Positions 14,187-64,000 of a DNA stretch of 64,000 bases are shown here, one piece after another. Numbering within the stretch: the stretch's first letter is position 1; every line of letters starts with the position of its first letter. The stretch covers positions 1 through 64,000 of IMG/VR virus record IMGVR_UViG_3300018429_000002; one strand, written 5' to 3'. The notes beneath the pieces were generated by a model. That model made no database searches, was not told where the DNA came from, and saw only the letters and a program-made list of their open reading frames with translations. The DNA is from a virus. Position numbers and translations under genes: made by a program.

Positions 14187-14447
14187 TTAAAAGTTGCCGC
14201 CTCTTACTTTCCAGATTTGATTCGCAATGCCCGCCGCATTGCCGCTGGCCTCAAAGCCGGCCTTGCGCATCGAGGCATCAACCTGCGCCTGCGTGGGGCG
14301 TGGGCCGGTTCGTTCTGCCGCCTTGCGAGCCTGCATTTCGTGCCACGTTTCGCAGGGATTCTTTCGCGCCCAAGGGCCGTCGGCGCTTTTGCAATGAGGG
14401 CAAGCGCCGTTGCTGAAATCGTGTTGTCGGGCTGCTGTGTTTTCCAT
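14187..14447 (-). CDS. Zinc-knuckle small protein, probably leaderless
   Basis: 86 residues. CPHCKSADGPWARKNPCETW holds C-x2-C and a third Cys, with RPTQAQVDASMRKAGFEASG downstream. Its ATG lies only 6 nt after TAGTAT of the minus promoter at 14454-14482, so the mRNA should start at or next to the ATG. First gene of the minus island. Confidence 0.65.
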   Translation of the reverse strand: MENTAARQHDFSNGACPHCKSADGPWARKNPCETWHEMQARKAAERTGPRPTQAQVDASMRKAGFEASGNAAGIANQIWKVRGGNF

Positions 14448-14453
14448 GTCCAG

Positions 14454-14482
14454 ATACTACAGTAATTGTATGGTCGTGTCAA
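14454..14482 (-). promoter_or_regulatory. Minus promoter of the 14447 island
   Basis: On the minus strand TTGACA (14477-14482), 17 bp, TAGTAT (14454-14459). The upstream AAAGAATT and -10 GTAGTATCT match the promoter at 11566-11595, so both islands may be under one control. Confidence 0.65.
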
Positions 14483-28167: not shown

Positions 28168-30801
28168 GTGGCGACATTAGGCCGGCTAACGACGGTATTT
28201 GATGCCGACACCGTCAAGTTTAAGGCGGGCTCCGCGGAAGTTCAAAAAGGACTTGCTGGCGTCGAGAAGTCCATCAATAGCGTATCTAGTTCCGCCCGAG
28301 GCTTTGCCGGCGGCATCCTACCGGGACTCGCAAGCATTTCAGAAATCATTCAGGGAATTCCGCAGATCGGACGACTTGCAGGCGGGCTGATCCGTCCGCT
28401 AACCGATGCTGCAGAAGAAGGCATCCGTCTCAATATGGTTTTGGAGACGGCTAAAATAGGATTTGAGGGCGTTGCGGGAAGCGCGGAGAAGTCAGGAAAG
28501 CATATTGCTGCTTTGATGGCATTTGGGCAGTCTTCCCCCTTCAGATTTGAAGGACTATTAGAAGCCTCACGGTTCATGACTGCCTTTGGTTTTGAACTTG
28601 ACGAGCAGATTCCAAAATTAACAGTCTGGGGCAACGCGCTTGCCGCATCTGGTGAACTGTCAGCCTCCAAGGTTCAGGATGTGGTGCGAGCGTTTGGGCA
28701 AATGCGGATGGCGGGCAGAGTCAACGCTCAAGATATGAACCAGTTGACGAATGCAAATATTCCCGGCTGGGAATTGCTTGCAAAAGCCATTGGAAAGACC
28801 GTCGCACAAACGCGAAAACTTTCCGAGGCTGGAAAACTGGAAGGCAAGTCGGCGGTCGAAGCTATTACGGCGATGATGGCCCAAGAGCCGCGCTTCAAGG
28901 ACATGATGAAGCGCATGGAGGGAACGGGCGCAGGACGGCTAAGCGCCGCTCAGGACGTTATTCAGTTCGCCCAGGCTAAAGCAACGACATCGCTGACTCA
29001 GGATATTTCCACAACCTTGGGCGCGGCGCTTCAGAGACAGAACGTAGTTAGTGAATTGGCTGGCTCGATTAACAACGCTATCACGCCCGTTTCCGCATTG
29101 ATAAGAACGGCGGCGGTTGGCGTTCTGGGAGGCGGATTAACGTCAGGATTTATCGAGGGAATTCAGGCCGGGAAGGATGCGGTCAAGGCTGCGGTGGGTG
29201 ACTTCGCGTTAGACGGCATCATTGGAACGGCAAAGGGCTGGCTGGGCATTCAATCCCCCTCCACAGTGTTCTATGACATGGGGCTAATGTCTGCGCAGGG
29301 CTTTGCTTTAGGACTACAAGAAGGATTCAGAGATAACCCAATAGTCAGAGAACTGGAAAAGCTGCTTGAAGATCCGCGAATGCGAGCATTTTTTGAAGCT
29401 ATCAAAAAAGCTGAGGGCGGTTCATTAAATGTTATGGCCGGGGGCCGCAGAGTGGATTCCGGCGCTCAACATCCCGGCGAGGTGGTGCCTAAGTCTCAAT
29501 GGTTTCGCGGCGACAAAGGCCGCAGTTCAGCCGCCGGGAACTACCAGATCACGCGGACAAACTGGCGTGTGATCGCCGCAGAGCTAGGCCTCGATAACTT
29601 CTCAGATCCGCATCAACAATTGCTGGCCGCTGTGAAGTTGTTTAGAGATCGCCGGGAAGGGGCGGGCGTCCAGGCATTGCAAAGTGGTGACATCGTAGGA
29701 GCCCGTAATGTGGCGGCGCTAGATTGGACTTCGACTCCTGGTTCAAAGATTGGCGGTGGCGGTCAAGTTGGCGCAAACAAGTGGATGGGTCATTACAATC
29801 AAGCACTGTCGTCGATGTCAGTTGGTGGTCGTGAAGTTTCGTCTAGTAATCCGTTCCCCGTTTACCTCGTTACCGGAGGCGTTGGGGGTAATGGTAGTCC
29901 CTTGATGTCGTTCGGCGCTCCTCAAAACGCAGAACGCTCGGGCGCAATGCGACCGGCTGGATTTACTGACCTGACTGACGCGCAGGCCGGAATGGTCGTT
30001 GATCGATTCAAAGCCGCACGAGGCGAGGTCTTAGCCACAACTACCGCCGCCAATAACCTAACGATCTCATTCAAGGCAGTGGCAGAGGTCGCGGGAATAG
30101 CGGCAGAGCAAAGTCAGGGGCAGGCCTTAGCCGCAGGCGAATGGGCCAAGGTAGTTATTCAACAGACCGACGATCTGGGCACACGTCTGCGTGACATTTC
30201 AGACTCGTTACCAACATTTAGAGAGAACTTTAATGACATCGTTTCCGGCTTACCCGAAGGTCTGGGAAATATTTTTGGTGATGCCGTGCATGAGTGGGAT
30301 CTAACCATGAAGGGATTTCTGACATCGCTCGGGCAAGGCGTGCAGCGGACACTATCGGACATTGCATCGATGGTGGCTTCAAGTGCTATTAAGAACGCCT
30401 TTGCCGAACTACTTGCGGGGTTATCATCGGGCGCGGGTAAAGGCGGATTCTGGGGCGGATTGCTTAAGACTATCTTTGGCGCTGCCGTTGGCGGGGCGGC
30501 GGGTGGCGCTGGGGGTGGCGGCGGGAGTGGATATGCGGGAATGGGTAACGTTTATGTTGGCGGGTACGCTTCTGGCGGTATCGTTCCAGGCGTAGATCGC
30601 GGATACGATTCCGTTCCGGCTATGCTTACACCCGGCGAGCTGGTTTTAACAAAGGAACAGCAGCGGGGAATGGGCCAGCAGGTCGTGAATAAGTATTACA
30701 CGATTAATTTACCGCCCGCGCCTAACTCAAGCTATAACCCGCGACGTTCGGCAAGGCAGCACGCGGACATGGTTCTCGCCGCATTGCAGGGGGCGCAATA
30801 A
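28168..30801 (+). CDS. Tape measure protein with embedded GH104 lysozyme domain
   Basis: 877 residues from GTG, directly after the GT stop. The N-terminal 270 residues are the usual tape-measure domain (SPFRFEGLLEASRFMTAFGF, IPGWELLAKAIGK at 198-210). Residues about 405-520 match lambda-R-type GH104 transglycosylases: Glu416 in IKKAEGG, then GRSSAAGNYQITRTNW (451-466) and SDPHQQLLAAVKLFRDR. The Gly-rich C-terminus has hydrophobic stretches. It sets tail length and opens peptidoglycan during DNA entry. Confidence 0.88.
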   Translation: MATLGRLTTVFDADTVKFKAGSAEVQKGLAGVEKSINSVSSSARGFAGGILPGLASISEIIQGIPQIGRLAGGLIRPLTDAAEEGIRLNMVLETAKIGFEGVAGSAEKSGKHIAALMAFGQSSPFRFEGLLEASRFMTAFGFELDEQIPKLTVWGNALAASGELSASKVQDVVRAFGQMRMAGRVNAQDMNQLTNANIPGWELLAKAIGKTVAQTRKLSEAGKLEGKSAVEAITAMMAQEPRFKDMMKRMEGTGAGRLSAAQDVIQFAQAKATTSLTQDISTTLGAALQRQNVVSELAGSINNAITPVSALIRTAAVGVLGGGLTSGFIEGIQAGKDAVKAAVGDFALDGIIGTAKGWLGIQSPSTVFYDMGLMSAQGFALGLQEGFRDNPIVRELEKLLEDPRMRAFFEAIKKAEGGSLNVMAGGRRVDSGAQHPGEVVPKSQWFRGDKGRSSAAGNYQITRTNWRVIAAELGLDNFSDPHQQLLAAVKLFRDRREGAGVQALQSGDIVGARNVAALDWTSTPGSKIGGGGQVGANKWMGHYNQALSSMSVGGREVSSSNPFPVYLVTGGVGGNGSPLMSFGAPQNAERSGAMRPAGFTDLTDAQAGMVVDRFKAARGEVLATTTAANNLTISFKAVAEVAGIAAEQSQGQALAAGEWAKVVIQQTDDLGTRLRDISDSLPTFRENFNDIVSGLPEGLGNIFGDAVHEWDLTMKGFLTSLGQGVQRTLSDIASMVASSAIKNAFAELLAGLSSGAGKGGFWGGLLKTIFGAAVGGAAGGAGGGGGSGYAGMGNVYVGGYASGGIVPGVDRGYDSVPAMLTPGELVLTKEQQRGMGQQVVNKYYTINLPPAPNSSYNPRRSARQHADMVLAALQGAQ

Positions 30802-31532
30802 TGGCCGTTGTATACCTCTTTGATGAGATTCTTTTGGATCCTGATATCTTCGTTGCGGGTGGGGCGTTGGGTGGCCCAACCTACAGCAACACAATGGCGC
30901 GCAATGCTCAGACAGGCATCCGCAAGGTGAATATTGGAAGGCTAGACTTTCAGCAGGAGTGGAATGTCCAAACTGAACTAATGACACCCGCTCGCCTTGC
31001 CTACTTCATGAATTTCTGGGGTGGTGGCTACGGCTCGGGCTATGGCTTTCGAGCCGTGATCGTCTCTGACTTCTACATGATCGACGAGGTGATCGGAATA
31101 GGCGACGGAGCACAGACGATCTTTCCGATAGTTAAAAAGTACATGCGCCCAGGCGCGAGCCACTCATACTCTCGACGCATTATCAAGCCGGTCGTGAATT
31201 CGCTTTTAGCGGTGGGTGGAGTTTCGCTATTTGAGCCAAACGGATCTACATCCCGAGTGATTCCAAGCGTGAGAGGGCAAGGGCAAAACGTCCCAGCATT
31301 CACCGTCAAACTTAACGATACGCCCACGGCTGCTTACACTGTAAACAACGTCACGGGCAACCTGATCATGACTTCCGCGCCGGGAGTAGGCGTGCTAGTC
31401 AAGGTGTCTTGTGAGTTCGACACTCCCGTCAGATTCTTGAATAACGCGGTTCAGATGAAACCCGACACGGCGAGCGAAATGAGCGGATTACAACTGGGAG
31501 AAATCTTGCCCGCCGAACTTGGGATAGCCTAA
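30801..31532 (+). CDS. Distal tail protein (DUF2460)
   Basis: 243 residues, TAATG overlap with the tape measure. RKVNIGRLDFQQEWNVQTEL and ARLAYFMNFWGGGYGSGYGF with FRAVIVSDFYM match DUF2460 (gp12-type of gene transfer agents). First of the GTA-like tail-tip set. Its stop overlaps the convergent stop of the minus-strand gene. Confidence 0.8.
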   Translation: MAVVYLFDEILLDPDIFVAGGALGGPTYSNTMARNAQTGIRKVNIGRLDFQQEWNVQTELMTPARLAYFMNFWGGGYGSGYGFRAVIVSDFYMIDEVIGIGDGAQTIFPIVKKYMRPGASHSYSRRIIKPVVNSLLAVGGVSLFEPNGSTSRVIPSVRGQGQNVPAFTVKLNDTPTAAYTVNNVTGNLIMTSAPGVGVLVKVSCEFDTPVRFLNNAVQMKPDTASEMSGLQLGEILPAELGIA

Positions 31533-32095
31533 TTCCGTCGATCTATTATTTTCCGAGCCTCTAGAGCGGCCCCCTTGTATTTTTGAGCATACATTGCCAG
31601 GAGAGCATCGCAAGCGGCGGAACTTCTGAGCCTGCGACGCTGGGCAAGAATCTCAGTTTCTCTAGCACTCTTACCTATAGCCTCCCCCAATATTTCAAAA
31701 GCGGGAACCCCAATATCAGACAACGCAATGAGATTTAGATATACCGCATCGTCTCTGCCGTTTTTTAGCGAAGCCATTCGCCCTACCAATTCTGAGTAGC
31801 CCTGATCGTTAAAGTCTAACGCTGCCGCCATGTCGCCACATGGGGTGAGGATTAACATAATCTGCTTCGGCTTAAATCCCGCAACGATTAGCCGCTGCGA
31901 AATGCCAATCAACCCGGACTGATACGGAGTCTCGCTGGAGTAGGCAGCGAGTTGCGCCGCAAGGTACTCAGCTTCGGGCTTAGATTTTAGTAGTCGAGTA
32001 AAGAGTGGTATCGCGTCCTGAGCAGATGTCTGACCATTTGCGAGAGTTGGAAACGAGAGCAGCAGAATCGCCAACGTCAATATGAAGGCTTTCAT
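31529..32095 (-). CDS. Secreted tape-measure-like protein, superinfection-exclusion candidate
   Basis: 188 residues from an ATG (complement 32093-32095). Signal peptide MKAFILTLAILLLSFPTLAN, cleavage near 20-23. The mature part aligns by eye with tape-measure residues ~112-250 of this phage: QLAAYSSETPYQSGLIGISQ with ALMAFGQSSPFRFEGLLEAS, and IGVPAFEILGEAIGKS with ANIPGWELLAKAIGKT. Own promoter; antiparallel in the middle of the tail operon, the place of a lysogenic-conversion gene. It likely acts in the periplasm against an incoming phage's tail tip or tape measure (inference). Confidence 0.7.
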   Translation of the reverse strand: MKAFILTLAILLLSFPTLANGQTSAQDAIPLFTRLLKSKPEAEYLAAQLAAYSSETPYQSGLIGISQRLIVAGFKPKQIMLILTPCGDMAAALDFNDQGYSELVGRMASLKNGRDDAVYLNLIALSDIGVPAFEILGEAIGKSARETEILAQRRRLRSSAACDALLAMYAQKYKGAALEARKIIDRRN

Positions 32096-32110
32096 AGTTA
32101 GCGGAGATGC

Positions 32111-32140
32111 TACGCCTCCAGGTATCCGCCTGTCAAAAAA
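32111..32140 (-). promoter_or_regulatory. Promoter of the secreted minus-strand gene
   Basis: On the minus strand TTGACA, 18 bp, TAGCAT, about 15 bases before the ATG. It is the house-keeping type, unlike the late promoter, so the gene can be expressed in the lysogen. Confidence 0.6.
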
Positions 32141-32175: not shown

Positions 32176-33003
32176 ATGCCAGTATCCGCAGAGTTAATTG
32201 ACCATCTCGCTTCAAATTGCACCTTCCTTTGTGCTATCTGGAAAATGACAGCGGCGGATGGGACGGTTGCCGCCTACGCTGCTCACACGCGGAGCCTGAC
32301 CTTTGACTCCCAACTCTACACCGCCGCCCCGGTTGAGCCTACCCGCTTCTCCCGAACCCTCGGCGTCTCGAAAGCCGATCACGTTGAACTATTCGGAATC
32401 TTTGACGACATCGTGACAGAGGAAGACGTTCAGGGTGGAAGATGGAAAAACGCCAAGATAGTTTTCGAGTATGTGAACTATTTGGATCTGACAATGGGTT
32501 CAGTGGGTCGCATGAAAGGTCAAGCCGGAAAATTCACGATCAACAACGGGACATTCAACGTTGAACTTCGCTCGCTTTCCGATCTGCTCAGTCAAGAGAT
32601 AGGCCAACTCACGAGCCCGCTCGATCGTCGCCGCCGTCTGGAAGATTTAGGCATCGACACCGCCCCGTTTATCTTCGCCCGAACAGTCACAGCAGTTGCG
32701 GATCGGATGAATTTCACGGTAGGCGGAACGGCTAAAGATGACAATTACTTCCAGTATGGACGGGTAGTTTGGAGCGGTGGAGACAACGAAGATTTAGAGA
32801 TGGAGATCAAGGCGAATGTTGGTAACGCAATTGAACTTCAGTTGCCAATGCTGAACGCGATCGAAGTGGGCGACACCGTTGATCTCTATGCCGGATATGA
32901 CGGCACAAGGGAAATGTGCAGAGATAAATTTAACGCAATGGAAGGCTTTGACGGCGAATGCGATCTTCCCGGAATTAAAGGGGTCATAACGTTTCCAGAA
33001 TGA
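32176..33003 (+). CDS. Tail-tip hub component (DUF2163 / BR0599 type)
   Basis: 275 residues. LCAIWKMTAADGTVAAYAAH (W-x2-T-x2-DG) and KIVFEYVNYLDLTMGSVGRM, with C-terminal YDGTREMCRDKFNAMEGFDG (C-x2-KF-N), are the hallmarks of DUF2163 hub proteins that follow DUF2460. Overlaps the NlpC gene by four bases. Confidence 0.82.
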   Translation: MPVSAELIDHLASNCTFLCAIWKMTAADGTVAAYAAHTRSLTFDSQLYTAAPVEPTRFSRTLGVSKADHVELFGIFDDIVTEEDVQGGRWKNAKIVFEYVNYLDLTMGSVGRMKGQAGKFTINNGTFNVELRSLSDLLSQEIGQLTSPLDRRRRLEDLGIDTAPFIFARTVTAVADRMNFTVGGTAKDDNYFQYGRVVWSGGDNEDLEMEIKANVGNAIELQLPMLNAIEVGDTVDLYAGYDGTREMCRDKFNAMEGFDGECDLPGIKGVITFPE

Positions 33004-33440
33004 GCACGCTAGCTGAAAGAATTGTTACCGAGGCTGAGGGCTATGTCGGCACTCCCTTTTTGCATCAGGGGAGACTGAAAGGCCTTGGGATCGACTGCGC
33101 CCACTTTGTTGCGAACGTGATCAACGCGGCCCGTGCTAATACGCCAGACATCAAAATTCCTCACGACTACAGACGGCGAGAAGATGGCACAATCATGATG
33201 GGGCTACTTGGGGCTAACGCAGACTTTGTGCCTACCGAAGAAAGGCAACCGGGCGACGTGCTGGCCTTGTGTGATGAAGCGTTGCGATTTCCTGGCATTC
33301 CCCGACACTTAGCCTTCGTTAAAGAAGTCACGCCGAAAACCACGTTTATCATTCACGCATCCGAGCACGGAGTTAGATCGCACCGCATGGACGCGAGATG
33401 GATGCGGCGGATTCATTCTGTGTGGAGGGCGCACGAATGA
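33000..33440 (+). CDS. NlpC/P60 tail peptidase
   Basis: 146 residues. Catalytic Cys33 in GLGIDCAHFV and His103 in PRHLAFVKE, with PGDVLAL between them, match the phage NlpC/P60 family. It cuts peptidoglycan cross-links or acts as a tail-tip plug. Overlaps the next ATG (ATGATG). Confidence 0.85.
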   Translation: MSTLAERIVTEAEGYVGTPFLHQGRLKGLGIDCAHFVANVINAARANTPDIKIPHDYRRREDGTIMMGLLGANADFVPTEERQPGDVLALCDEALRFPGIPRHLAFVKEVTPKTTFIIHASEHGVRSHRMDARWMRRIHSVWRAHE

Positions 33441-37195: not shown

Positions 37196-37324
37196 ATGTT
37201 TTACATATTGCTAATCTTGACCTTACTGATTGCTTCCGTTCCTGAGAAGCGAGCTAAGTCAAAGTCTTGCAGAGCACCAAAAGGTCAGGAAGTTGTTTGT
37301 TACGTTTCGCCGGAATTGAAGTAA
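37196..37324 (+). CDS. 42-residue membrane-anchored peptide
   Basis: ATG 37196 after ATAGGAAGGC. FYILLILTLLIASVP is a membrane or signal segment, and the polar remainder has two Cys (SKSCRAP, VVCYV). The TAA overlaps the spike's ATG (TAATG). A small secreted or membrane peptide, or a translational relay. Confidence 0.5.
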   Translation: MFYILLILTLLIASVPEKRAKSKSCRAPKGQEVVCYVSPELK

Positions 37325-40300
37325 TGGCTATTACAATCCCAACAGCAGATCCACGCGAGAGTGGCAGCGCGTTCATGCCTCAACTGCGAGCAGCGTTTGA
37401 TGCCGCCTACGTCGCCTCGGGCGCTATTTACAACGTCACCGTGTATGGCGCTCTTGGTGATGCAATCGAGATCGTTGACGCCTCAATAACTTCCGGCACT
37501 CCCGATCTGGAATCTCTAAGCAGCACATTCACCGATGCAGAGATCGGTAAATCAATCAGCGTGCGCGGAGCGGGAACGGCAGGAGCCACGTTACGCGAAA
37601 CTATTATTGCCGTTCCTTCGCCTACTGAGTTAACGCTTTCCGGGAATGCTGTGACTACCGTTTCCGCTGAACAGGCAGTTTACGGAACAGACGATCTAGC
37701 TGCGTTCATTGCTGCGAAGAGTGCTGCCGTTGCGGAAGGCGGGGGAACTGTGATCGTCCCTGCTGGGTTCTATTACCTCTCTGGACAAATTCCGTGTGAT
37801 GGAACAGTCGCTTTCAAGGGGACGGGCTACAGTGAGATGTCAACCGTAGGCGTCGCCGCCTTATGGGGCTCCCGACTCTACATCGGTTTTGAGGTTGCAA
37901 CTGCTGATTCGCTTTTTTACGTCACCGCTCAAGGTGTCGAGATTGAGGGTCTGGAGTTCTACTGCACGCAAAATCAGACAACTGCCCTGACAACTCCCTG
38001 GTCTATCTTTGCCTACCGCGTTCCCTTTGCAGACGTTGGTGGAGACGGTCTCAAGGCTCGCAATCTCATGATCCGAAACTTGAGTCATGGAATCAAAGTC
38101 TCAGCGGACAGATGCGTTCTGGATCTCATCTATGGACAGCCAATGGTACTGGGAATTTATCTGGACGGTGTTTACGATTCCGCGAAAGTCACAAGAGTGC
38201 ATTGGTGGACCTACTGGGCAGGCTTGGCAGTGAGCTACACGTTAGCCAACTGTACTGGCTTACTGCTGGGTCGCGTTGATCATCCTTCAGTATCAGATTA
38301 TTTCGCGTTCGGCTGTTTCAAGGGGATAGATTTTGAAGATAGCGCGGTAGGCGTTAATCCGTCTGGTTACACCACCAAAGGCCAGTTCTCAAACATCCGT
38401 TTGGATAATGTGCATTACGGCATTTACGCGGGCGGCAATGGTGAGGCGAGCTTTTCAAATCTTGTTATCTACTGCATCTCAGGTGTTGGAGATGCAACGA
38501 CCGGTTCAAGGGGAATCTGGATAAGGTCTACGTCGTTGGCAGTTTTCCAGATTACAGGCGGCGACTTCTTTAACTCTGACCTTGAGGCAATTCGGGCGGA
38601 CGCTGGATTCGTTGGATGGTCCACCGTTCTGATTCGAACATGGAACGAACTAAACAACGGTAGTACCGCATTCTACGGCGCATCGGGAGCAACGTTTAAT
38701 CCAGGTCCTACTAGTGCCGATCCTACGCTTGCAAATGGTGGCGCGGTCTATGGTGGCACTCCTTCACTAGCAGGGTTCAGAGCGCCAACCACACCAACAG
38801 CCACCGGCGGTCTCGGAACCATAACCCCCTTTTCACACATCAGCAGTCTGGCTGCAAATCTTGATGTGACCGCAGTGGGCACGTCTCGATTTGTGTTGCA
38901 CGATACGACCGACCCGCACGAGGTAAAAATCTCGCTTCAGAATGCCGGAGGTGTGTTTTTTGACATTGCCGGATCGTCAACGGTGGCAAATAATTTTACT
39001 GCCTTTCGTGTCGGGCTTACTCCATCAGCCTACAGTGGCATGACCGAGATGGCCCGCATTAACTCTACAGGGATGGGGATCGGAACTTCGATTCCTGCGT
39101 TTAACGCCAATCCCTCTACCTTTCTCGCTGTAGCCCGGTCTACCGCTGGTCAGTTTGGCGAGATTGGATTAGGAGGCAATGCCACGGGGACAACCGACAC
39201 GCTAGGCGCGTTGGGCTTTTACAATTCATCGCTGGCGACCGCAGACAAACGCAACGCGGCCATGGTTGGAATCAACGATGGTGCGGTTAACTCCGGCAAG
39301 TTGCAATTCTATACATGGGATGCAGGCTCTCCCGGCCTAGCGCTGACGATAGACAAAACGCTTCTGGTGAGCGTGGCCAGCGCTTTGGTTACTCCAATAT
39401 TCGCAGTCTCTGGATTGACCCCTGGGAGACTGCCGATCATCTCGACTGCGGGTCTCTTTGTTACCGACTCTGATTTGAGCTGGTCCGTTGATACTCTCAC
39501 GTCTACAAAGATTGTTGGCTCTACAAGTATTTCAACCCCATCACTGATAGCCGCTGCAAACCTTACCGCTGCACCCGTTGGTGATTGGATCTTCAATCCG
39601 GGCGGCAAGGATGTTAACCCGGCAGTTAACTATGACCTGAACCTTGGGGCGCTGGACAAGAAGTATCTAACCTTGCACGCTGCTGAATTGTGGGTTGAAA
39701 CTCTTGTTGCCCAGAACACTATCGCAACCATTGGGGGTAGGATTCTTGTTGGCCCAACGACGGTATTGACTTCCGATCTTGCAGCGGCTGGAACCTCGAT
39801 CATTGTCAAACACAATCAAATGGTTAGTGGCGATCGTGTCTACATGGAGGCTAACGGCAAAGTTGAATTCATGGCGATCACGTCTGGACCTTCAGGCGGC
39901 GGACCATACACTTACACCGTCACTCGCAACCTTGACGGCTCGGGCGCGAATGATTGGTTTGCTGGTGATGCCGTTTTCAACACAGGAACGACTGGAAATG
40001 GATTCATGGATTTGTACTCTGCGCGAGGAGTGAAGGCAGGGACGGAACTTGGCCCAACCATCGTAGGCAATGTCCGAAATTCGACAACCTATAACGACTG
40101 GTCAAGTCACTGGGCCATCGGCAACCTTGACGGACTTTATGGTTATTCAGGTACGGCTTTCGGTGCTGCGTTTGGAAAGTTCTCAACGACATCTTCATAC
40201 ATCACGATTGACTCGACAAATGGGTATCGAGCAATAAGTCAAAATGCGGTGCGTCTGCAAATCTCAGCAGCAGGTGTGATGACCCTGCGCGATTCTGCCG

Positions 40301-42258
40301 GGGTTGCAAAGATTACTTTAGACGCGGCTGCAGGGATGACCCTTGACGGCAAGATGCAGATGCTCGGATCAAGTTCTGCAATTGCTATCGGCGTTTTGCC
40401 TCCACTCAGTGCAGCAATCGGTACAGGGCTTTGGCAAGACCGCACGGGGCTCTATGGAATCCTCGGAGTTAAGCAAGTCGAGACTACAACCGTACTGGGA
40501 ACGGTGACGCTAAACGGTAACGCAGCGGTGACAGTCACCGCGGCAAGCATGGTCGGGTCGCCCTACGTGCTCAACGTGGCCGTGCTCAATGGTGATACCG
40601 CGACCGTCGTGGCGGGTAAGGTTCGTACAGCCTTGGGTCTCGACGCTACGGTGACCGCTTTCTTCACCGTGAGTGGCGCTGGCGCGGACGTGATACTTAC
40701 CGATCTTCATGGTCGTGCAAACGACGCGACGATGAACCTTCGGATCACTAACGGCACTTGTACGGGCTTGACTCTGGCGGATTCTGCAAACACCACAGCA
40801 GGATCGAATACGACGCAGGCGAAGCTAGACGCGGCGACGGGGGCAATTACAGCAGGGGGTGGAAACGTCGTCATGGACGCACTGGGGCTGTCAATCGTGT
40901 CTGGTTCTGGCGTGTCGAATGGAATTACATGGAGATCGTCAAACCTACCCATTGGCTCGATATATTCGTTTTATGCAAGCGGTACAGCGAGTTTTACTGT
41001 CGTGAGTTCTGCTCTGAAGGCCTCGGATACTACTGGAGCAGCAGAGGGTCGGTTTGAGATAACCAACGATGTAGGCAGCGGCGCTGTGTTTGGCGTCAGG
41101 GCATATGGCAGCGTCAGAGGAGCAGATCCGAATGTGGCGTTCGCCTATCTTGATCAATTCGGAAGCCCTACTTTCAAAGGATTCATCGTCGGGGCTACTA
41201 CAACCCCCATCTCCATGCTTGATGTGAGAGGGACAATCAGTGTTGGCCCTGCATTCACTGGGGTAACTCCCGGAATCTTGTGCAGAGACATAGCCGCGAA
41301 TTACTCAATTCTCGGGTTCTACCCGCAGTCTGGAACGAACGTAAACATGAGCTTCCAGATATTCCCTAAAGGGACGGGGCAGTCTGGGAATAGGGCACAG
41401 TTTACGGTATTCAATACGGATGGCGTGGCAGATTCAGCCAACATTGAATATTTGACCTTCCGCGCAACTGGAACGAGCTTTCTGGCCGCATCCGGGCAGG
41501 AAGGAACGGGTACACTTCGCCATGTAATCATTTCCGCTGGGGCTGCGTCGAGCGGTTCCCCAACGAATTCAAATCAACTTTATTTAGCGACAACCGGGAA
41601 TGTGAAGCTGTCAGGCTCAGCAGTCAGAGGCACAACGGAAGGAACCAACCACCTCGACATATTTGACGGGACAGCGCCAGTCGGAACGTTAACCAACGGT
41701 GTTTCACTCTACTCTGCCTCGGGTGAATTACGGTCGATGGATTCTGGAGGCACGTCAACCTTGCTGTCTCAACATGCCTCAGACGCACCCGAATGGATGC
41801 ACGACGATGACCCTACGCCGCCGAATATTAGTCGCGAGACAAACTGTTTTTCAGGCATTGTTCGGTTCATCAACTTTACTCGCCAAGCCCGATTGCAGCA
41901 ACTCGTGTTCGACGCGGAGCCGCTGCCTGCCGACCCTCAAAAACGGAAGATTATCCACGAGGAAAAATTCGCGGAATACAATGCGCGTCTCAATTTGCCA
42001 TCAAGTGATCCGCGATTTTTGGTAGTGGCTGATTGGGACGCGGATCAGGAGACGCATCGGATTAATCGCATAGCAGAACGCGCTGAATGGAGCGAATACA
42101 AAGCGGCATGGGAGCAATACGGCAGAGAGAATCCAGAGAAGGCACGGCCATTCCCGCATCCAGAACCGCAAGAACACGTCAAACGAGAAAAGCCTGACTG
42201 GCTAAAGAGAGGGAAAAATGACGAAACAGGAGAAGAAGAAAATGTCAGCACTCGGTGA
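37324..42258 (+). CDS. Tail spike with pectate-lyase-type beta-helix
   Basis: 1644 residues. Residues about 35-470 are a beta-helix of the pectate-lyase-3 type (YNVTVYGALGDAIEIVDASI, GGTVIVPAGFYYLSGQI), which in phages degrades capsule or binds glycans. The middle is built of repeated Gly/Thr/Ala-rich strands like long fibres. The last ~130 residues differ: charged helices (RKIIHEEKFAEYNARLN). The 3' end overlaps the next gene by 41 bases. Confidence 0.8.
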   Translation: MAITIPTADPRESGSAFMPQLRAAFDAAYVASGAIYNVTVYGALGDAIEIVDASITSGTPDLESLSSTFTDAEIGKSISVRGAGTAGATLRETIIAVPSPTELTLSGNAVTTVSAEQAVYGTDDLAAFIAAKSAAVAEGGGTVIVPAGFYYLSGQIPCDGTVAFKGTGYSEMSTVGVAALWGSRLYIGFEVATADSLFYVTAQGVEIEGLEFYCTQNQTTALTTPWSIFAYRVPFADVGGDGLKARNLMIRNLSHGIKVSADRCVLDLIYGQPMVLGIYLDGVYDSAKVTRVHWWTYWAGLAVSYTLANCTGLLLGRVDHPSVSDYFAFGCFKGIDFEDSAVGVNPSGYTTKGQFSNIRLDNVHYGIYAGGNGEASFSNLVIYCISGVGDATTGSRGIWIRSTSLAVFQITGGDFFNSDLEAIRADAGFVGWSTVLIRTWNELNNGSTAFYGASGATFNPGPTSADPTLANGGAVYGGTPSLAGFRAPTTPTATGGLGTITPFSHISSLAANLDVTAVGTSRFVLHDTTDPHEVKISLQNAGGVFFDIAGSSTVANNFTAFRVGLTPSAYSGMTEMARINSTGMGIGTSIPAFNANPSTFLAVARSTAGQFGEIGLGGNATGTTDTLGALGFYNSSLATADKRNAAMVGINDGAVNSGKLQFYTWDAGSPGLALTIDKTLLVSVASALVTPIFAVSGLTPGRLPIISTAGLFVTDSDLSWSVDTLTSTKIVGSTSISTPSLIAAANLTAAPVGDWIFNPGGKDVNPAVNYDLNLGALDKKYLTLHAAELWVETLVAQNTIATIGGRILVGPTTVLTSDLAAAGTSIIVKHNQMVSGDRVYMEANGKVEFMAITSGPSGGGPYTYTVTRNLDGSGANDWFAGDAVFNTGTTGNGFMDLYSARGVKAGTELGPTIVGNVRNSTTYNDWSSHWAIGNLDGLYGYSGTAFGAAFGKFSTTSSYITIDSTNGYRAISQNAVRLQISAAGVMTLRDSAGVAKITLDAAAGMTLDGKMQMLGSSSAIAIGVLPPLSAAIGTGLWQDRTGLYGILGVKQVETTTVLGTVTLNGNAAVTVTAASMVGSPYVLNVAVLNGDTATVVAGKVRTALGLDATVTAFFTVSGAGADVILTDLHGRANDATMNLRITNGTCTGLTLADSANTTAGSNTTQAKLDAATGAITAGGGNVVMDALGLSIVSGSGVSNGITWRSSNLPIGSIYSFYASGTASFTVVSSALKASDTTGAAEGRFEITNDVGSGAVFGVRAYGSVRGADPNVAFAYLDQFGSPTFKGFIVGATTTPISMLDVRGTISVGPAFTGVTPGILCRDIAANYSILGFYPQSGTNVNMSFQIFPKGTGQSGNRAQFTVFNTDGVADSANIEYLTFRATGTSFLAASGQEGTGTLRHVIISAGAASSGSPTNSNQLYLATTGNVKLSGSAVRGTTEGTNHLDIFDGTAPVGTLTNGVSLYSASGELRSMDSGGTSTLLSQHASDAPEWMHDDDPTPPNISRETNCFSGIVRFINFTRQARLQQLVFDAEPLPADPQKRKIIHEEKFAEYNARLNLPSSDPRFLVVADWDADQETHRINRIAERAEWSEYKAAWEQYGRENPEKARPFPHPEPQEHVKREKPDWLKRGKNDETGEEENVSTR

Positions 42259-45604: not shown

Positions 45605-45743
45605 TACTTTTCCTTTGTTCCGAGATGGACCAGCCAGCGGTATTCGTCAGACGGCTGTTGTAATACCAGCGAAAAGTAATTCGATAGCGCCACTCTTCCG
45701 GTACCTCCCAGAGAAAATCAAAAATCTCAGATTCAATGCTCAC
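45558..45743 (-). CDS. 61-residue early-left protein
   Basis: GTG overlapping the HNH stop (GTGA). IFDFLWEVPEEWRYRITFRW then YYNSRLTNTAGWSISEQRK is a plausible small beta domain. The last 15 residues overlap the zinc-finger gene in another frame, so the end may be non-essential or frame-altered. Confidence 0.5.
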   Translation of the reverse strand: MSIESEIFDFLWEVPEEWRYRITFRWYYNSRLTNTAGWSISEQRKSNEYATREPVSMRGLR

Positions 45744-46270
45744 GACTTCCCATCCTTTGCTGCCTCAATGTCAGGAAAATTTAGCCATGCAAATTCCCCA
45801 AAGAATTCCCTAGCTTTTACGTCGTATGCTCGGGCGGCCTCTTCTGCGGTTTTGAAATACCCTATGCAACTATATTTGTAGTTGTGGCGGATTTGCGCTG
45901 CCCAGCAGTATTTACGGCCAGCAAATGCAGGATTGTGCTTTCGGTAAACCCCTTTAAAACCCGAAGTGTTATCACTACGCAAAGACCTATTTGCGGCGTT
46001 CCCACACCGAGTAGCCAACCGAAGATTGCTCCTACGGCAATCTAGTCCGTTTCTGTTTTTGTGGTCTACATGGAAGCCTGAAGGCGCGGAAAGTATAACT
46101 TGATGTAGTCTAATCATAGTCCGCTTGCCACTCATGGTCACAGTGCGAGATGCGTACCAAGTGCGGCCAGTACACGAAAGAGAAGCCTGCCACTTGTATT
46201 TAGCGACGCTCTCGTAATCCTCATCATCAACCAGCGCCACTTGACCTTTAGTTAGTTTAATTTCTTTCAC
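45740..46270 (-). CDS. HNH homing endonuclease with AP2 domain
   Basis: 176 residues from GTG. HVDHKNRNGLDCRRSNLRLA (residues ~67-86) is the HNH core; NTSGFKGVYRKHN and WAAQIRHNYKYSCIGYFKTA form an AP2-type DNA-binding domain. Free-standing mobile endonucleases of this type spread between phages. The start overlaps the stop of an 11-codon ORF. Confidence 0.85.
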   Translation of the reverse strand: MKEIKLTKGQVALVDDEDYESVAKYKWQASLSCTGRTWYASRTVTMSGKRTMIRLHQVILSAPSGFHVDHKNRNGLDCRRSNLRLATRCGNAANRSLRSDNTSGFKGVYRKHNPAFAGRKYCWAAQIRHNYKYSCIGYFKTAEEAARAYDVKAREFFGEFAWLNFPDIEAAKDGKS

Positions 46271-46302
46271 CTTGTTATTACCTTGCTGGCTATATTGCTC
46301 AT
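46267..46302 (-). CDS. 11-codon leader ORF of the HNH gene
   Basis: MSNIASKVITR with a strong site (GAGGAGCTAATC); its TGA overlaps the HNH GTG. It appears to deliver ribosomes to a start lacking its own site. Confidence 0.4.
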   Translation of the reverse strand: MSNIASKVITR

Positions 46303-46304
46303 GA

Positions 46305-46667
46305 TTAGCTCCTCAAGTTGGCTAGTGCGGCCAGCGCAGCCCGTAACGCCTTCCGTTCTGTCCAGCCTTCGGGGAAGTCGCCCTTATGCCTATCGCAGGC
46401 TTCCCAGCGGGTTTCAGGGTCGTCCCATCTATCCCAGAGCGCAACGTTTTCACAGTCGTCACAGCCACCGGATTCATCAACTACCAACGCTGCCAGCGTT
46501 ACCGTCGACTTCCGCTCCTCTGCCCTCACCGATGCTTCCCTGGCATCCAGTGCGGCGACTATCGCGTCTCCAAGTTGCTTAACGTGTGACGTTGGGCCTA
46601 TGTACCCTGCGGCTTTCGCAAAGTCGGCCAATAACCTGTTCACCGTTTTCTTGTTCTGGTCACTCAT
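46305..46667 (-). CDS. Early-left protein with Cys cluster (120 residues)
   Basis: Helical N-terminal half (VKQLGDAIVAALDAREASVR). CDDCENVALWDRWDDPETRW followed by CDRHKGDFPEGW gives C-x2-C ... C-x2-H, a zinc-ribbon-like part. C-terminal helix RKALRAALAALANLR. Orphan. Confidence 0.65.
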   Translation of the reverse strand: MSDQNKKTVNRLLADFAKAAGYIGPTSHVKQLGDAIVAALDAREASVRAEERKSTVTLAALVVDESGGCDDCENVALWDRWDDPETRWEACDRHKGDFPEGWTERKALRAALAALANLRS

Positions 46668-46672
46668 TTCAT

Positions 46673-47068
46673 TTACACCCTTCCACTTCTCTCGTAATCC
46701 AATATCCTTGCCTCTAGTCGCTCCACCTCTGCCCTCGCCTCAGTAAGTTTGATAGACAGCGCCTCTGCCTTCGTTTCTAGTCGGACCGTGTGGGCGTGTT
46801 GATTCTTTCGTTCCGCAAGTATCTGGGCTTGGCTTTCTTCCAGTGCGGTTAATAAAAAGTCTATGTCCGCGGGAGCGTGAGCAATGAACTCCGAGTTGTC
46901 CCTGTCGAACGTATCTGCGTAGCCTGTGGCCGCAACCATCATTGAGCCTCGTCTTTGTACGGCCCACACGGTATGCCCTCTACCGCTCACGTGCTGGTAT
47001 TCCCATGCACCTTCCGTAATCTTCGCCAGCCGTGCCTCTATCTCTGCTATCTGGTCTGATTTAGTCAT
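46673..47068 (-). CDS. Ead/Ea22-like early protein
   Basis: 131 residues. IEARLAKITEGAWEYQHVSG, then NSEFIAHAPADIDFLLTALE matches a frequent early phage protein pattern (lead helix, W, then F-I-A-x-A-x-x-D-x-x-x-L-L). The C-terminal coiled coil follows. Function unknown even in relatives. Confidence 0.65.
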   Translation of the reverse strand: MTKSDQIAEIEARLAKITEGAWEYQHVSGRGHTVWAVQRRGSMMVAATGYADTFDRDNSEFIAHAPADIDFLLTALEESQAQILAERKNQHAHTVRLETKAEALSIKLTEARAEVERLEARILDYERSGRV

Positions 47069-47100
47069 TTCAAATCTTTCTTTTTAACTGGGTTTTGCAA

Positions 47101-47328
47101 TCATTCCACCTTCGTGCTATCTCTGCGCTTCTCTTGAGCTACCTCAATTGCCTGCCCTAGCGCTATATGCACTTCCAGCGCGACGGGTAGTGTAAACATC
47201 GCATGCCCTTCATAGTCGTCGGTTATTACGTTAAAGAAATAGCCGTCAGTGGAAACCTCACAACGCGAGGCAATAAACTCGGGCGACTGGTCTTTAACGA
47301 TGATCTGATGAAACAGTATTCCTGCCAT
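47101..47328 (-). CDS. 75-residue early-left protein
   Basis: ATG overlaps the HNH gene's stop. Beta-rich (CEVSTDGYFFNVITDDYEGH) with a C-terminal helix (ALGQAIEVAQEKRRDS). No family recognised. Confidence 0.6.
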   Translation of the reverse strand: MAGILFHQIIVKDQSPEFIASRCEVSTDGYFFNVITDDYEGHAMFTLPVALEVHIALGQAIEVAQEKRRDSTKVE

Positions 47329-47780
47329 TACGCTGCCTTCCTCGCTTCTTTCATTGCCAGTTCTCTGGATTTTGTTCCCAAAAGTTCCAACTCTCGGGCC
47401 ATCTTTCTCCCTGCTACCGTGTGGTGAGCGTAGTCATGATGGTAAGGACATAAGCATGCACCGTTCGACTCGTCCCACTTCAAATCCGGCCTTTGTGCTC
47501 TCGTGTGAATGTGATGAGCATGAATGTGTTTTGAGTAGTAGCCACACTTGGGCCATCGGCATGTAAAGTTGTCGTTCTCTCTTACCTTGGCGATCCAGTT
47601 GATCTCTACCTGGCTTCGGTGCCTTCGCTTTAGTGTTCCGCCTGATTGCGACTTACCAACACGCCGAAGGCGGAACGACCGGGCAGATCGGGTGCAGGAG
47701 TTCTTTGCAGCATCAAGCCGAATTCTGAATCCAGTCCTCTTCATTGGCTTAGAGGATTGGGGCATGTAAGATCGTTTCAT
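47328..47780 (-). CDS. HNH endonuclease
   Basis: 150 residues. A very basic N-terminal third leads to CRWPKCGYYSKHIHAHHIHT and NGACLCPYHHDYAHH, the zinc-bound HNH fold. Could be a homing enzyme or a packaging-type nuclease; position in the early operon favours the former. Confidence 0.8.
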   Translation of the reverse strand: MKRSYMPQSSKPMKRTGFRIRLDAAKNSCTRSARSFRLRRVGKSQSGGTLKRRHRSQVEINWIAKVRENDNFTCRWPKCGYYSKHIHAHHIHTRAQRPDLKWDESNGACLCPYHHDYAHHTVAGRKMARELELLGTKSRELAMKEARKAA

Positions 47781-47824
47781 TCAGTTCCTTTTGTGCAGAC
47801 GCCGGACATCTCAGGCGTGGCGGG

Positions 47825-48565
47825 TTAGTTGGTGCCGCTCGCAACGAGCGTGTCGGTATCGACCTTCTCGCCTATCGTTACCATCTCTCCCGCGACCCGG
47901 TCGCCCTCTTGCGGGATTCTAAAGATGTAAACGGTGTCTCTAGGGCTGAATTCTGATTTCTCGCCCAGGCTAACCGGGAAGACGCACGTCACGGCTCGCC
48001 GTGGAGACAGCTTGCGATAGAGCTGAGCGGAATGCTCGGCGATAAGGTAGAAGATTTCCTCTACTTTCAAATCAACGAATTCTTTGACTACAAAGCGCTT
48101 CTGGCTTTCCTCGATATCACGCGCAACCGAGCGCTCAATCTCCGCAAAGAATCCCCAGACATCAAATACGTCGGCGGTAGCCTCCAGCGTGGCTCGGCTG
48201 ACGACGTTCGTCATCGACGACGAACAGTTCTCGCCCTGATGTGCCCAGCCAATGACGTACTGCCGATAGCGAGCGCCAAACGCCTCAAGGTTTCCAGGGA
48301 CCAGCGCTATCGACTCAGAGTTGTTTATTACCATTCGAATCTCGGTGATCATCGAAAGGGATGATTGATTCACAACTACGGAGTGCCCAAACCATTGCAG
48401 GGCATCTGCGGGGTCGGCGGAGAATCGTTCGATAGCTGTGGCGATGTATTCGCGCAGTTCAGATTCACGTCCATCGAGGCTGCGGTACGTATCTTTCAGA
48501 ACGTCCTCGAATTCACGGGCGACTACGACTGAATTGCTAAGAGAATATGGCGAATTGTGTATCAT
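47825..48565 (-). CDS. Early-left protein of 246 residues, unknown
   Basis: ATG with AAAGGTAAAACA. Acidic, helix-rich: FEDVLKDTYRSLDGRESELR, FFAEIERSVARDIEESQKRF. C-terminal 60 residues beta-like (TCVFPVSLGEKSEFSPRDTV). No motif recognised. One of the larger orphans, so a good candidate for a host-takeover or anti-defence role (inference from position only). Confidence 0.65.
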   Translation of the reverse strand: MIHNSPYSLSNSVVVAREFEDVLKDTYRSLDGRESELREYIATAIERFSADPADALQWFGHSVVVNQSSLSMITEIRMVINNSESIALVPGNLEAFGARYRQYVIGWAHQGENCSSSMTNVVSRATLEATADVFDVWGFFAEIERSVARDIEESQKRFVVKEFVDLKVEEIFYLIAEHSAQLYRKLSPRRAVTCVFPVSLGEKSEFSPRDTVYIFRIPQEGDRVAGEMVTIGEKVDTDTLVASGTN

Positions 48566-48639
48566 TGTTTTACCTTTCCAAGTCCCGCGTTGCGCGGGCT
48601 ACGACCGTTTACGTTCTCCGTTGGGTTCTTTGTATTCAT
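48562..48639 (-). CDS. 25-codon peptide coupled to 48565
   Basis: ATG (complement 48637-48639) after CAGGGGA; reads MNTKNPTENVNGRSPRNAG then LGKVKQ. Its TGA overlaps the next ATG. Its codons include a perfect hairpin CCCGCG/CGCGGG (48584-48598). Confidence 0.4.
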   Translation of the reverse strand: MNTKNPTENVNGRSPRNAGLGKVKQ

Positions 48640-48675
48640 TCCCCTGAAGTCTTTGGATTCTGTTCCCCTACTAGA

Positions 48676-48822
48676 CTAAGAGCGTCTGAGACCATCTGGC
48701 CCCGGCGCATCGCTGTAGATATGCCAATGCGTAACGTCCCGTCGCCCTGACATTGGCTCGCGTTCGATTTCGCATTGAACCCGCCACGGTCGCGGAGTAG
48801 CCTTATCTTCTGTTTCGCTCAT
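48676..48822 (-). CDS. 48-residue early-left protein
   Basis: ATG (complement 48820-48822) after AAAGGGAAGTG. KATPRPWRVQCEIEREPMSG, then RDVTHWHIYSDAPGPDG. Small soluble protein; family unknown. Confidence 0.55.
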   Translation of the reverse strand: MSETEDKATPRPWRVQCEIEREPMSGRRDVTHWHIYSDAPGPDGLRRS

Positions 48823-48887
48823 CACTTCCCTTTCGCTCTCAAATAAAATCTTTCAACTTAGACGCCTGCCATTTGAGGCGCGGCGGG

Positions 48888-49788: not shown

Positions 49789-49803
49789 TTGATCTATCCC
49801 TCT

Positions 49804-50181: not shown

Positions 50182-50399
50182 AGTTTCCCTTCGTTCCATT
50201 CGCTGCTCATGATGTCTAGCGTTTCCCTGGCGAGCGTTCCGCCAAGTTCCTGCCACCGAGAGAATTCTTTTTGCCATCTCCAAGGCCTCTCCAAATAGGC
50301 AAGTACTTCGTCTATGTCGGATACCTGCCCGCACTCGTGGAGCACGTGGGCGAATGCAATGATTTCATCGTATCGGCCCATGTCTGCGATCTTGCTCAT
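50178..50399 (-). CDS. 73-residue early-left protein
   Basis: ATG 50399 with CACGGAGTAAAGAA; its stop overlaps the next ATG. DEIIAFAHVLHECGQVSDID, then WRWQKEFSRWQELGGTLARE. All-helical orphan. Confidence 0.6.
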   Translation of the reverse strand: MSKIADMGRYDEIIAFAHVLHECGQVSDIDEVLAYLERPWRWQKEFSRWQELGGTLARETLDIMSSEWNEGKL

Positions 50400-50578: not shown

Positions 50579-50602
50579 TTCTATTCCCTCTCTCGTCCTC
50601 AA

Positions 50603-51029: not shown

Positions 51030-51061
51030 AACTAATCTCCTTCAAATCTCAATCTGTTTGT

Positions 51062-51376: not shown

Positions 51377-51403
51377 AACTAAATCTCCTTATGCTGTCGT
51401 GAG

Positions 51404-52844: not shown

Positions 52845-53303
52845 TTAGGCTACTTTGGTTTTCTTGGGCTTGGGCTTTTCTGCGTCCGGTTCGGGTTTAA
52901 TACGTCGCTGTGTCCATAGCGCCTTAACCATCTCTTCGGCCAATAAGCGATCTTCTGGGGAAAGCTCATTGTAATACCGAAGAATTCGAACCGGGTGGGA
53001 GTTTTCAGTCATTGCGGCCCCTGGTTTGAGGTATCCGAGCGCGGCCAAGGGCTCCGCGATGCTCACCCCAAACGAACGTGCCAGTTTATGAAGGAAGTCC
53101 AGCGTGGGCGATGGCGGGCTTCCTCCGGGGGAATGGGGAGTCGCTTTTTCTACCTTGCTAATGAACGCCTTACCCCGCTTGACCTGATCGCCAAGTGTCT
53201 CTTGGCTCATTCCGGCTTGCTCTCTCTTCATTTTAACCCAAGCGCCTAGCGCTTTTGAGTCAGGAATCACCGCCGCGTTCCTCCATGTCTTTAGGTTGCC
53301 CAT
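52845..53303 (-). CDS. CI-like repressor (HTH XRE, no peptidase domain)
   Basis: 152 residues. The helix-turn-helix (MKREQAGMSQETLGDQVKRG, KAFISKVEKATP) lies at about 24-58. The C-terminal half is helical with an oligomerising-type stretch (VRILRYYNELSPEDRLLAEE) and a Lys/Pro tail; no LexA-type Ser-Lys protease is present, so induction may need an antirepressor or another signal. Divergent from the Cro-like gene. Confidence 0.8.
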   Translation of the reverse strand: MGNLKTWRNAAVIPDSKALGAWVKMKREQAGMSQETLGDQVKRGKAFISKVEKATPHSPGGSPPSPTLDFLHKLARSFGVSIAEPLAALGYLKPGAAMTENSHPVRILRYYNELSPEDRLLAEEMVKALWTQRRIKPEPDAEKPKPKKTKVA

Positions 53304-63019: not shown

Positions 63020-63265
63020 ATGAGCGCTCGATTTCAAATCGTTGACTCTGATATGGACGACCTGATCCCGCTTCACGTCGGGGCCGCAAAACTTGGTTTG
63101 GATGCGTCCACGATTCGCAAGCGGAAGGCAGGCACGGAGAAGCTAACCCTTATTCGGCAGGGTCGAAATCTCTACATGGTGCTTGGGGAAGTGATTGCGC
63201 ACCGGCAGAAAATGACAGAAGATGCGCGGCGTAAGAACAGCCCTATCCGGTTGGTGACTGAATGA
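63020..63265 (+). CDS. Excisionase-like HTH protein
   Basis: 81 residues, ribosome site GAGGGAATT. LIPLHVGAAKLGLDASTIRK, RKAGTEKLTLIRQGRNLYMV is a MerR/Xis-type winged helix. It overlaps the integrase start (ATGA), the usual place for xis. Confidence 0.7.
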   Translation: MSARFQIVDSDMDDLIPLHVGAAKLGLDASTIRKRKAGTEKLTLIRQGRNLYMVLGEVIAHRQKMTEDARRKNSPIRLVTE

Positions 63266-64000
63266 TTAAGAAATTCTTCTCAAATCGAAATCGCCCTGGC
63301 TGGAAGTACGACTCTCGTCTGAAGAAATACTATTCGTGGGGCTTTGAAATGTATCTGGCCTCTGGCCGGCGGAAACGTGAGACTGGGTTTCTAAATCGGG
63401 CCGATGTTGAGTCGGTTGTTGTTCGGATTCGTCAACTGGAAAAGGAGATGCGATATGGAGTCACAATGTCCGTGGAAGCGCCCACTTTGGAAGAGGTGTC
63501 CGCGAAGAAGCTCACGCTCACGGCAAGCCGCAGGGAGCAGGTGCGAGCGAAGAGAGTTCTAGCCGTGTTCCGCAGGGTTGCCCAGGTCAAACGAGTGACA
63601 GAACTGAAAACCGAGCACCTTCAAAGATTCGTAGACTTCCGTCGCAAGGAAGTACAACCGCAAAGCGTTGACCGGGAGTTGAATATTATTTCTGGGATGC
63701 TCCGTGCTGCCGTAGTTCACTTCCCTGCTTTGTCTGACTGGATCGTTCCTCGCATTCCTCGCCCTAAGCACTCAAAGCGCCGCAGAGAGCGAGTAATAAG
63801 CATTCAGGAAGTCGCCAAGGTCTTGACCTGGCTCTACGCGCCGCAGGAAGGCGAGACGGTAAGGCAATCCGCGAAGCGCCGGAATGTGGGCCATGTATTC
63901 CGAGTCGCATTACTGACGGGGGCACGCAAGGGCGAACTGTGCAAGTTACGGTGGAGTCAAGTCGATTGGGATGCGGGGGTCGTCCAGATCATTGGAACCA
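63262..64000 (+). CDS. Tyrosine integrase, truncated by the window end
   Basis: First 246 residues are visible. N-terminal DNA-binding part with SWGFEMYLASGRRKRETGFL, core-binding helices (RREQVRAKRVLAVFRRVAQV, LNIISGMLRAAVVHFPALSD), and the first catalytic Arg222 in LLTGARKGELCKLRWSQVDW. The HxxR and Tyr motifs lie beyond the window. It would integrate the phage at a site that cannot be located here. Confidence 0.88.
   Translation, partial: MIKKFFSNRNRPGWKYDSRLKKYYSWGFEMYLASGRRKRETGFLNRADVESVVVRIRQLEKEMRYGVTMSVEAPTLEEVSAKKLTLTASRREQVRAKRVLAVFRRVAQVKRVTELKTEHLQRFVDFRRKEVQPQSVDRELNIISGMLRAAVVHFPALSDWIVPRIPRPKHSKRRRERVISIQEVAKVLTWLYAPQEGETVRQSAKRRNVGHVFRVALLTGARKGELCKLRWSQVDWDAGVVQIIGT

What the first reader, a model, noticed from the sequence alone, without database searches (positions are those of the whole stretch)
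31529..32095. Secreted protein that resembles a segment of the phage's own tape measure
Seen: a minus-strand gene with a signal peptide and TTGACA/TAGCAT promoter lies inside the late tail operon. Its mature part aligns by eye with residues ~112-250 of the tape measure (28168-30801): QLAAYSSETPYQSGLIGISQ versus ALMAFGQSSPFRFEGLLEAS, and IGVPAFEILGEAIGKS versus ANIPGWELLAKAIGKT. Known: some prophages express envelope proteins that block DNA entry by incoming phages, and such exclusion can target the tape measure. Inference: this is a decoy of the tape-measure entry domain, giving the lysogen immunity to related siphoviruses.
Basis: partly seen in the sequence, partly recalled or inferred. Interest (0 to 1): 0.85.

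Follow-up and report, generated by a model that had tools for sequence, protein, structure and literature searches.

The report
Secreted tape-measure-domain gene in temperate phage
This bacterial virus carries, inverted inside its tail genes and with its own promoter, a small gene for an exported protein that is a stand-alone relative of one domain of the tail's tape measure protein; it probably helps a dormant virus keep related viruses from injecting their DNA, though that function is untested.

Summary
31529-32095(-) encodes a 188-aa protein with a Sec-type signal peptide. Its mature part is homologous to the N-terminal (TMP_3) domain of the phage's tape measure protein (TMP): BLASTP 2e-10; 9.7e-13 with a profile built only from TMPs; its AlphaFold model (pLDDT 96) retrieves the same tape measures as the TMP-domain model, TM 0.83. 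A second phage, L003, has a 30%-identical homologue in the same inverted place.

The place is a moron slot: relatives L014 and L109 carry an unrelated signal-peptide protein there, L008 a third. Four of these five genes share an exact leaderless-promoter pattern found nowhere else in the fetched loci. The phage has an integrase and a repressor-like gene. The gene occurs only with TMP_3-type tape measures (2/2 versus 0/4).

Corrections: it is not a recent copy of the phage's own TMP (p=0.008), and it has lost over half of the most conserved TMP residues.

Best reading: a prophage-expressed superinfection-exclusion protein interfering with incoming tape measures in the envelope. Function is inferred. 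No TMP-derived exclusion protein was found in the papers searched.

The parts
31529..32095 (-). Secreted TMP_3-domain protein ('TMPX'), 188 aa
32036..32095 (-). Signal peptide MKAFILTLAILLLSFPTLAN (approximate cleavage), no lipobox
   Evidence: read from sequence; rule-based scan; counterpart MKQCFITLIAILMLAGIAHAQQ in L003
31547..32017 (-). Domain homologous to the tape measure N-terminal domain (TMP_3 / tape_meas_nterm)
32107..32136 (-). Promoter TTGACA-N18-TAGCAT, -10 ends 11 nt before ATG (leaderless mRNA expected)
28168..30801 (+). Tape measure protein, 877 aa
28423..28956 (+). TMP_3 domain of the tape measure (aa 86-263), the counterpart of the secreted protein
   Evidence: PF20155 2.6e-17
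29347..29748 (+). Lysozyme-like segment of the tape measure (aa 394-527)
   Evidence: phrog_17230 7.3e-15; phrog_90 endolysin 1e-10
30801..31532 (+). DUF2460 tail protein, left border of the moron slot
32176..33003 (+). Gp84-like baseplate hub protein, right border of the moron slot
33000..33440 (+). NlpC/P60-like tail protein
   Evidence: weak Pfam; phrog_329
52845..53303 (-). Repressor-like HTH protein
63262..64000 (+). Tyrosine integrase (continues past the window to contig position 64488)
   Evidence: PF00589 3.1e-22

Best explanation
It is a moron: a gene with its own promoter, inserted inverted between two tail genes of a temperate long-tailed phage. It makes an exported, soluble, all-helical protein that is a stand-alone version of the N-terminal TMP_3 domain of tape measure proteins. 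Most likely it is made from the prophage by host RNA polymerase while the late genes are silent; in the lytic cycle the late + strand transcript runs antisense through it. In the envelope it would act as a superinfection-exclusion factor: when a phage with a TMP_3-type tape measure ejects that protein, the secreted domain would either occupy the same host partner or join and block the oligomeric tape-measure conduit, so DNA does not enter. Shown here: homology, predicted fold, signal peptide (by sequence), promoter-like site, slot, and occurrence with TMP_3-type tape measures. Inferred: lysogenic expression, envelope location, exclusion, and the blocking step.
For: Homology and fold. Same arrangement in a second phage at 30% identity: frame, signal peptide and promoter are kept while the sequence changes. 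Dedicated leaderless promoter with perfect TTGACA in window, L003, L109, L014 and L008. The slot holds exported proteins of different families in relatives, or nothing. Temperate genes. Occurs only with TMP_3-type tape measures in this tail family. Much faster divergence than the tape measure domain (30% versus 93% identity between the same two phages). Precedent for the tape measure as the target of prophage exclusion or defence: Ltp (PMC3952083), HK97 gp15 (via PMC10883804), Tab (PMC10884400), SNIPE with escape mutations in the TMP N-terminal region (PMC13190303).
Against: No functional data. The protein is not closest to its own tape measure and keeps only 15-16 of 35 near-invariant TMP positions, losing most of the GR..D.NQL motif, which weakens a strict-decoy reading. 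The other cargo of the slot does not resemble any tail protein, so the slot need not be for exclusion. Only two examples are known. A 15.5-kb fragment with an 84%-identical TMP domain (L028) has no such gene. The host is unknown, so periplasmic location is assumed.
Confidence: 0.5

Rival explanations
1. Exapted domain: the tape-measure fold was recruited as an envelope protein with another role in the lysogen (host fitness, surface change), like the other unrelated exported proteins in the same slot.
For: The slot carries at least two other exported protein families of unknown function. The protein has lost many conserved TMP residues and has a cysteine shared by both secreted copies but absent from the two phages' TMPs.
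Against: Found only in phages whose tape measure has the same domain type, not in relatives with other tape measures. Stand-alone TMP_3 ORFs are otherwise almost absent, which fits a link to the tape measure.
Confidence: 0.27
2. Counter-defence decoy: the exported domain soaks up envelope proteins of the host or of rival prophages that bind tape measures, protecting this phage's own entry or kin.
For: Tape-measure-binding defences exist (PMC13190303; PMC3952083). A surface mimic under rapid change would look like this.
Against: A factor present before infection is made by the resident prophage, which gains little from helping incoming phages. No such defence is known in the host, which is unidentified.
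Confidence: 0.1
3. Lytic-cycle helper: an exported accessory for the phage's own tail assembly or DNA ejection.
For: It lies inside the tail operon and resembles a tail component.
Against: Opposite strand with its own promoter, exported away from the site of tail assembly, absent from relatives with intact tail operons.
Confidence: 0.06
4. Decaying duplicate or chance ORF with no function.
For: It is short and diverged.
Against: Frame, signal peptide, promoter and domain are conserved across a homologue only 30% identical.
Confidence: 0.02

Closest known systems
Tape measure protein N-terminal domain (Pfam PF20155 TMP_3; NCBIfam TIGR02675 tape_meas_nterm)
   Same: Homologous sequence over nearly the whole domain and same predicted fold
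   Different: Stand-alone, exported, own promoter, opposite strand; below curated cut-offs; many conserved residues lost
HK97 gp15 superinfection exclusion moron
   Same: Moron within tail genes of a temperate siphovirus; hybrids point to tail tube/tape measure as the target (PMC10883804; position from own knowledge)
   Different: gp15 is predicted membrane-anchored and not tape-measure-derived (own knowledge); here a cleavable signal peptide and a tape-measure fold
Ltp of Streptococcus phage TP-J34
   Same: Exported prophage protein in superinfection exclusion whose target is the tape measure (PMC3952083)
   Different: [quoted passage not shown] here no lipobox and homology to the N-terminal domain
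Tab (Pseudomonas phage JBD26)
   Same: Prophage-expressed, works through the tape measure (PMC10884400)
   Different: Blocks tail assembly inside the cell, linked to the TMP C-terminus; here exported
SNIPE
   Same: Acts at DNA entry by meeting the tape measure; escape mutations lie in the TMP N-terminal region (PMC13190303)
   Different: Membrane nuclease with DUF4041; no nuclease here
P22 SieA
   Same: Prophage protein that blocks the DNA-delivery conduit (PMC10883804)
   Different: Integral inner-membrane protein against podovirus ejection proteins

Membership tests
TMP_3 / tape measure N-terminal domain | Significant profile similarity over the domain | tested here: met
   Profile from TMPs only: 9.7e-13 (window) and 2.3e-15 (L003), profile positions 9-147 and 9-156 of 171; PF20155 1.5e-5 for the L003 copy
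TMP_3 / tape measure N-terminal domain | Score over Pfam's curated cut-off (41 bits) | tested here: not met
   L003 copy 25.3 bits; window copy no PF20155 hit
TMP_3 / tape measure N-terminal domain | Same fold | tested here: met
   TM 0.83, rmsd 2.0-2.3 to TMP N-terminal domains; same top four BFVD targets as the TMP domain model. The alignment given to AlphaFold contained TMPs, so this is not fully independent
Tape measure protein (whole) | Long tail-spanning protein in the late operon | tested here: not met
   188 aa, signal peptide, opposite strand
Phage moron | Extra gene between genes that are adjacent in relatives, with its own promoter | tested here: met
   Slot empty in L006, L009-L013, L018; other cargo in L014, L109; promoter-like site, activity not tested
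Superinfection exclusion protein | Made from the prophage | not testable with these tools
   Only indirect: own promoter, antisense to late genes, temperate genes present
Superinfection exclusion protein | Blocks infection or DNA entry of related phages | not testable with these tools
   Needs an infection assay
Ltp-type lipoprotein | Lipobox cysteine at the signal peptide end | tested here: not met
   No Cys near the cleavage site in either copy
HK97 gp15 | Single N-terminal membrane anchor with YebO-like N terminus | tested here: inconclusive
   N terminus looks like a cleavable signal peptide; no significant Pfam hit; YebO not compared specifically
SNIPE | GIY-YIG nuclease and DUF4041 | tested here: not met
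   No such Pfam or PADLOC hit
Tab / Tai tail-assembly inhibitors | Action on tail assembly inside the infected cell | not testable with these tools
   The signal peptide predicts export, which argues against it; function not tested

The most novel reading that the evidence does not exclude
A prophage immunity protein made by exporting a stand-alone tape-measure domain, which blocks DNA entry by phages whose tape measures carry that same domain: exclusion built from a piece of the injection machine itself, carried in a tail-operon slot whose exported cargo is exchanged between phages under one conserved leaderless promoter.
Probability: 0.42. Interest if true: 0.86.

Novelty: new variant of a known kind. 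Interest (0 to 1): 0.72.

Why it matters
How siphovirus tape measures carry DNA through the envelope is still poorly understood, and the role of their conserved N-terminal domain is unclear. An exported single-domain relative gives a small, soluble, probably well-folded protein with which to test what that domain binds during entry. If it excludes phages, it would be an exclusion mechanism based on mimicry of the injected protein, and its slot and promoter give a way to find other exclusion genes in uncultured phages.

Tried and rejected
A scan of viral contigs with the secreted protein alone found nothing; the tape measure, DUF2460 and Gp84 neighbours were needed to find L003 and the slot. 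The genome-contig scan with Gp84 found only two distant tail modules, so the host was not identified; no tRNA in the window. The plasmid search gave one weak hit under a 'peptidoglycan DD-metalloendopeptidase' gene. The PDB fold search gave only poor matches, TM about 0.2, although solved tape measures match by sequence profile (9ki1, 9ndy, 9m8o). Considered and rejected: lipoprotein (no lipobox); recent duplicate of the phage's own tape measure (AU p=0.008; grouping with the wider own-type TMP clade is not rejected, p=0.375); chance ORF; the other slot cargo as a second tail mimic (no similarity to any other ORF in the fetched loci).

Full report
1. What is there. The record is a 71,577-base virus contig from IMG/VR. 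In the tail region the + strand order is tape measure (28168-30801), DUF2460 protein (30801-31532), Gp84-like hub protein (32176-33003), NlpC/P60-like protein (33000-33440) and a large Phage-tail_3 protein. Between DUF2460 and Gp84, on the minus strand, lies an ORF of 188 codons from ATG 32095 to a stop at 31529 that overlaps the DUF2460 stop. It begins with a textbook Sec signal peptide and has no lipobox. I call it TMPX here.

2. Is the resemblance real? Yes. BLASTP of TMPX against the tape measure gives 2e-10 over residues 114-240; the local score of 121 compares with a maximum of 63 in 1000 shuffles. Searched in six frames against 50,697 phage records, every annotated function under the hits of TMPX and of its L003 homologue is a tape measure; the rest are hypothetical or unannotated. 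PHROG tape measure families are hit by both, and the L003 copy hits Pfam TMP_3 at 1.5e-5 over positions 11-168 of 192, below the curated cut-off. A profile built from 67 tape measure domains only, without either TMPX, finds them at 2.3e-15 and 9.7e-13 among 9103 ORFs. AlphaFold models of TMPX (pLDDT 96.2) and of the tape measure domain (86.9) have matching helix order and retrieve the same top four viral tape measures, TM 0.77-0.83 and 0.85-0.89. Caution: the alignment given for TMPX was mostly tape measures, so the fold result is not fully independent of the sequence result.

3. A second case. Contig L003 (IMGVR_UViG_3300010397_000157) has a tape measure 53% identical overall and 93% in the TMP_3 domain, the DUF2460 gene, and then, inverted, a 199-aa signal-peptide protein 30% identical to TMPX, E=6e-22. 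The two TMPX proteins form one clade (98/98) on long branches (1.7 and 2.1 changes per site, against 0.02-0.07 for the two tape measures). Placing them with only the two phages' own tape measures is rejected (p-AU 0.008); placing them with the wider set of that tape-measure type (L028, L032) is not (p 0.375). So TMPX is an old relative that changes fast, or has been exchanged, and is not a fresh copy. Some other phages' tape measures (L037, L035, L033) score higher than the phage's own.

4. The slot. In relatives with 56-72% identical Gp84, the same gap between DUF2460 and Gp84 is empty (L006, L009-L013, L018) or holds inverted genes. L014 and L109 carry there a different exported protein of 149-159 aa, homologous to each other and to nothing else found. 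L008, cut by the contig end, begins a third signal-peptide protein. All these genes have a perfect TTGACA with a 16-18 spacer and a -10 ending within about 11 nt of the ATG, too close for an ordinary ribosome-binding site, so the mRNA should be leaderless. The pattern TTGACA-N16-18-TAGNNT-N4-12-ATG occurs in the fetched loci only in front of these slot genes: window, L003 (with its duplicate loci), L109 and L008; L014 has a weaker -10. The same promoter type occurs at two other minus-strand places in the window, so it is probably the host's ordinary promoter. This makes the slot a moron site whose exported cargo differs between phages under a similar promoter.

5. Life style. A tyrosine integrase at 63262-64488 (PF00589, 3e-22) and a repressor-like HTH protein at 52845-53303(-) point to a temperate phage. 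A minus-strand gene with a host-type promoter inside the late + strand operon should be on in the lysogen and run over by antisense transcription in the lytic cycle. This is inference; no expression data were available.

6. Link to the tape measure type. Of relatives where the tape measure N-terminus can be read, those with TMP_3 (window, L003) have TMPX; those without it (L006, L010 group, L014, L018) do not. This is 2/2 against 0/4, suggestive only. L028, with an 84%-identical TMP_3 domain but another tail module, has no TMPX in its 15.5-kb fragment. As background, the 40 over-cut-off TMP_3 matches in 299 bacterial genomes all sit in frames of 442 aa or more, and among the viral tape measure loci the only intact short frames with the domain are the two TMPX genes.

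7. What it probably does. Prophages are known to act through the tape measure: Ltp (PMC3952083), HK97 gp15 (as summarised in PMC10883804), and in another way Tab (PMC10884400). SNIPE meets the tape measure at the inner membrane, and escape mutations of phage Bas14 lie in tape measure residues 100-150 (PMC13190303). Against this background, an exported relative of the tape measure N-terminal domain, carried by a temperate phage and found with tape measures of the same type, is best read as an exclusion protein. Two ways of acting are open: competing for the envelope partner of the incoming domain (decoy), or joining and jamming the oligomeric conduit. TMPX keeps only 16 and 15 of 35 near-invariant tape measure positions, with much of the GR..D.NQL motif lost, and both copies share a cysteine that the tape measures lack; this argues against a faithful decoy and is compatible with a binder or blocker. 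The main rival is that the fold was recruited for some other envelope role, as the neighbouring cargo families might be.

8. Novelty. Exclusion through the tape measure is known; exclusion by an exported piece of tape-measure fold was not found in eight literature searches of the open-access library, which does not cover most subscription journals. I therefore rate it a new variant of a known kind, with the function unproven.

Noticed in passing
L109:1209-1658(-), L014:9431-9910(-): A second exported protein family of unknown function, two homologous members in the same moron slot, with no Pfam, PHROG or PADLOC hit.
   Followed up: partly
L008:1-201(-): A third exported protein, truncated by the contig end, behind the same leaderless promoter pattern just upstream of Gp84.
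   Followed up: partly
window 11566-11595(-) and 14454-14482(-): Two more copies of the TTGACA-N17/18-TAGNNT promoter in front of minus-strand ORFs (14187-14447 starts 6 nt after it); the + strand ORFs opposite look spurious.
   Followed up: partly
window 45740-52751(-): Four HNH endonuclease-like genes on the minus strand between the tail and repressor regions.
   Followed up: no
window 37267-42258(+): 1663-aa tail-region protein matching a pectin-lyase-like PHROG (phrog_32881), possibly a depolymerase tail spike.
   Followed up: no
window 31529-32095(-) and L003:7471-8070(-): A cysteine (C86 in the window copy) is shared by both secreted proteins but absent from the two phages' tape measure domains.
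   Followed up: no
BFVD A0A8S5REI6 (179 aa) and A0A8S0IA04 (218 aa): Two short viral proteins in the structure library fit the same domain; they may be fragments or further stand-alone cases.
   Followed up: no
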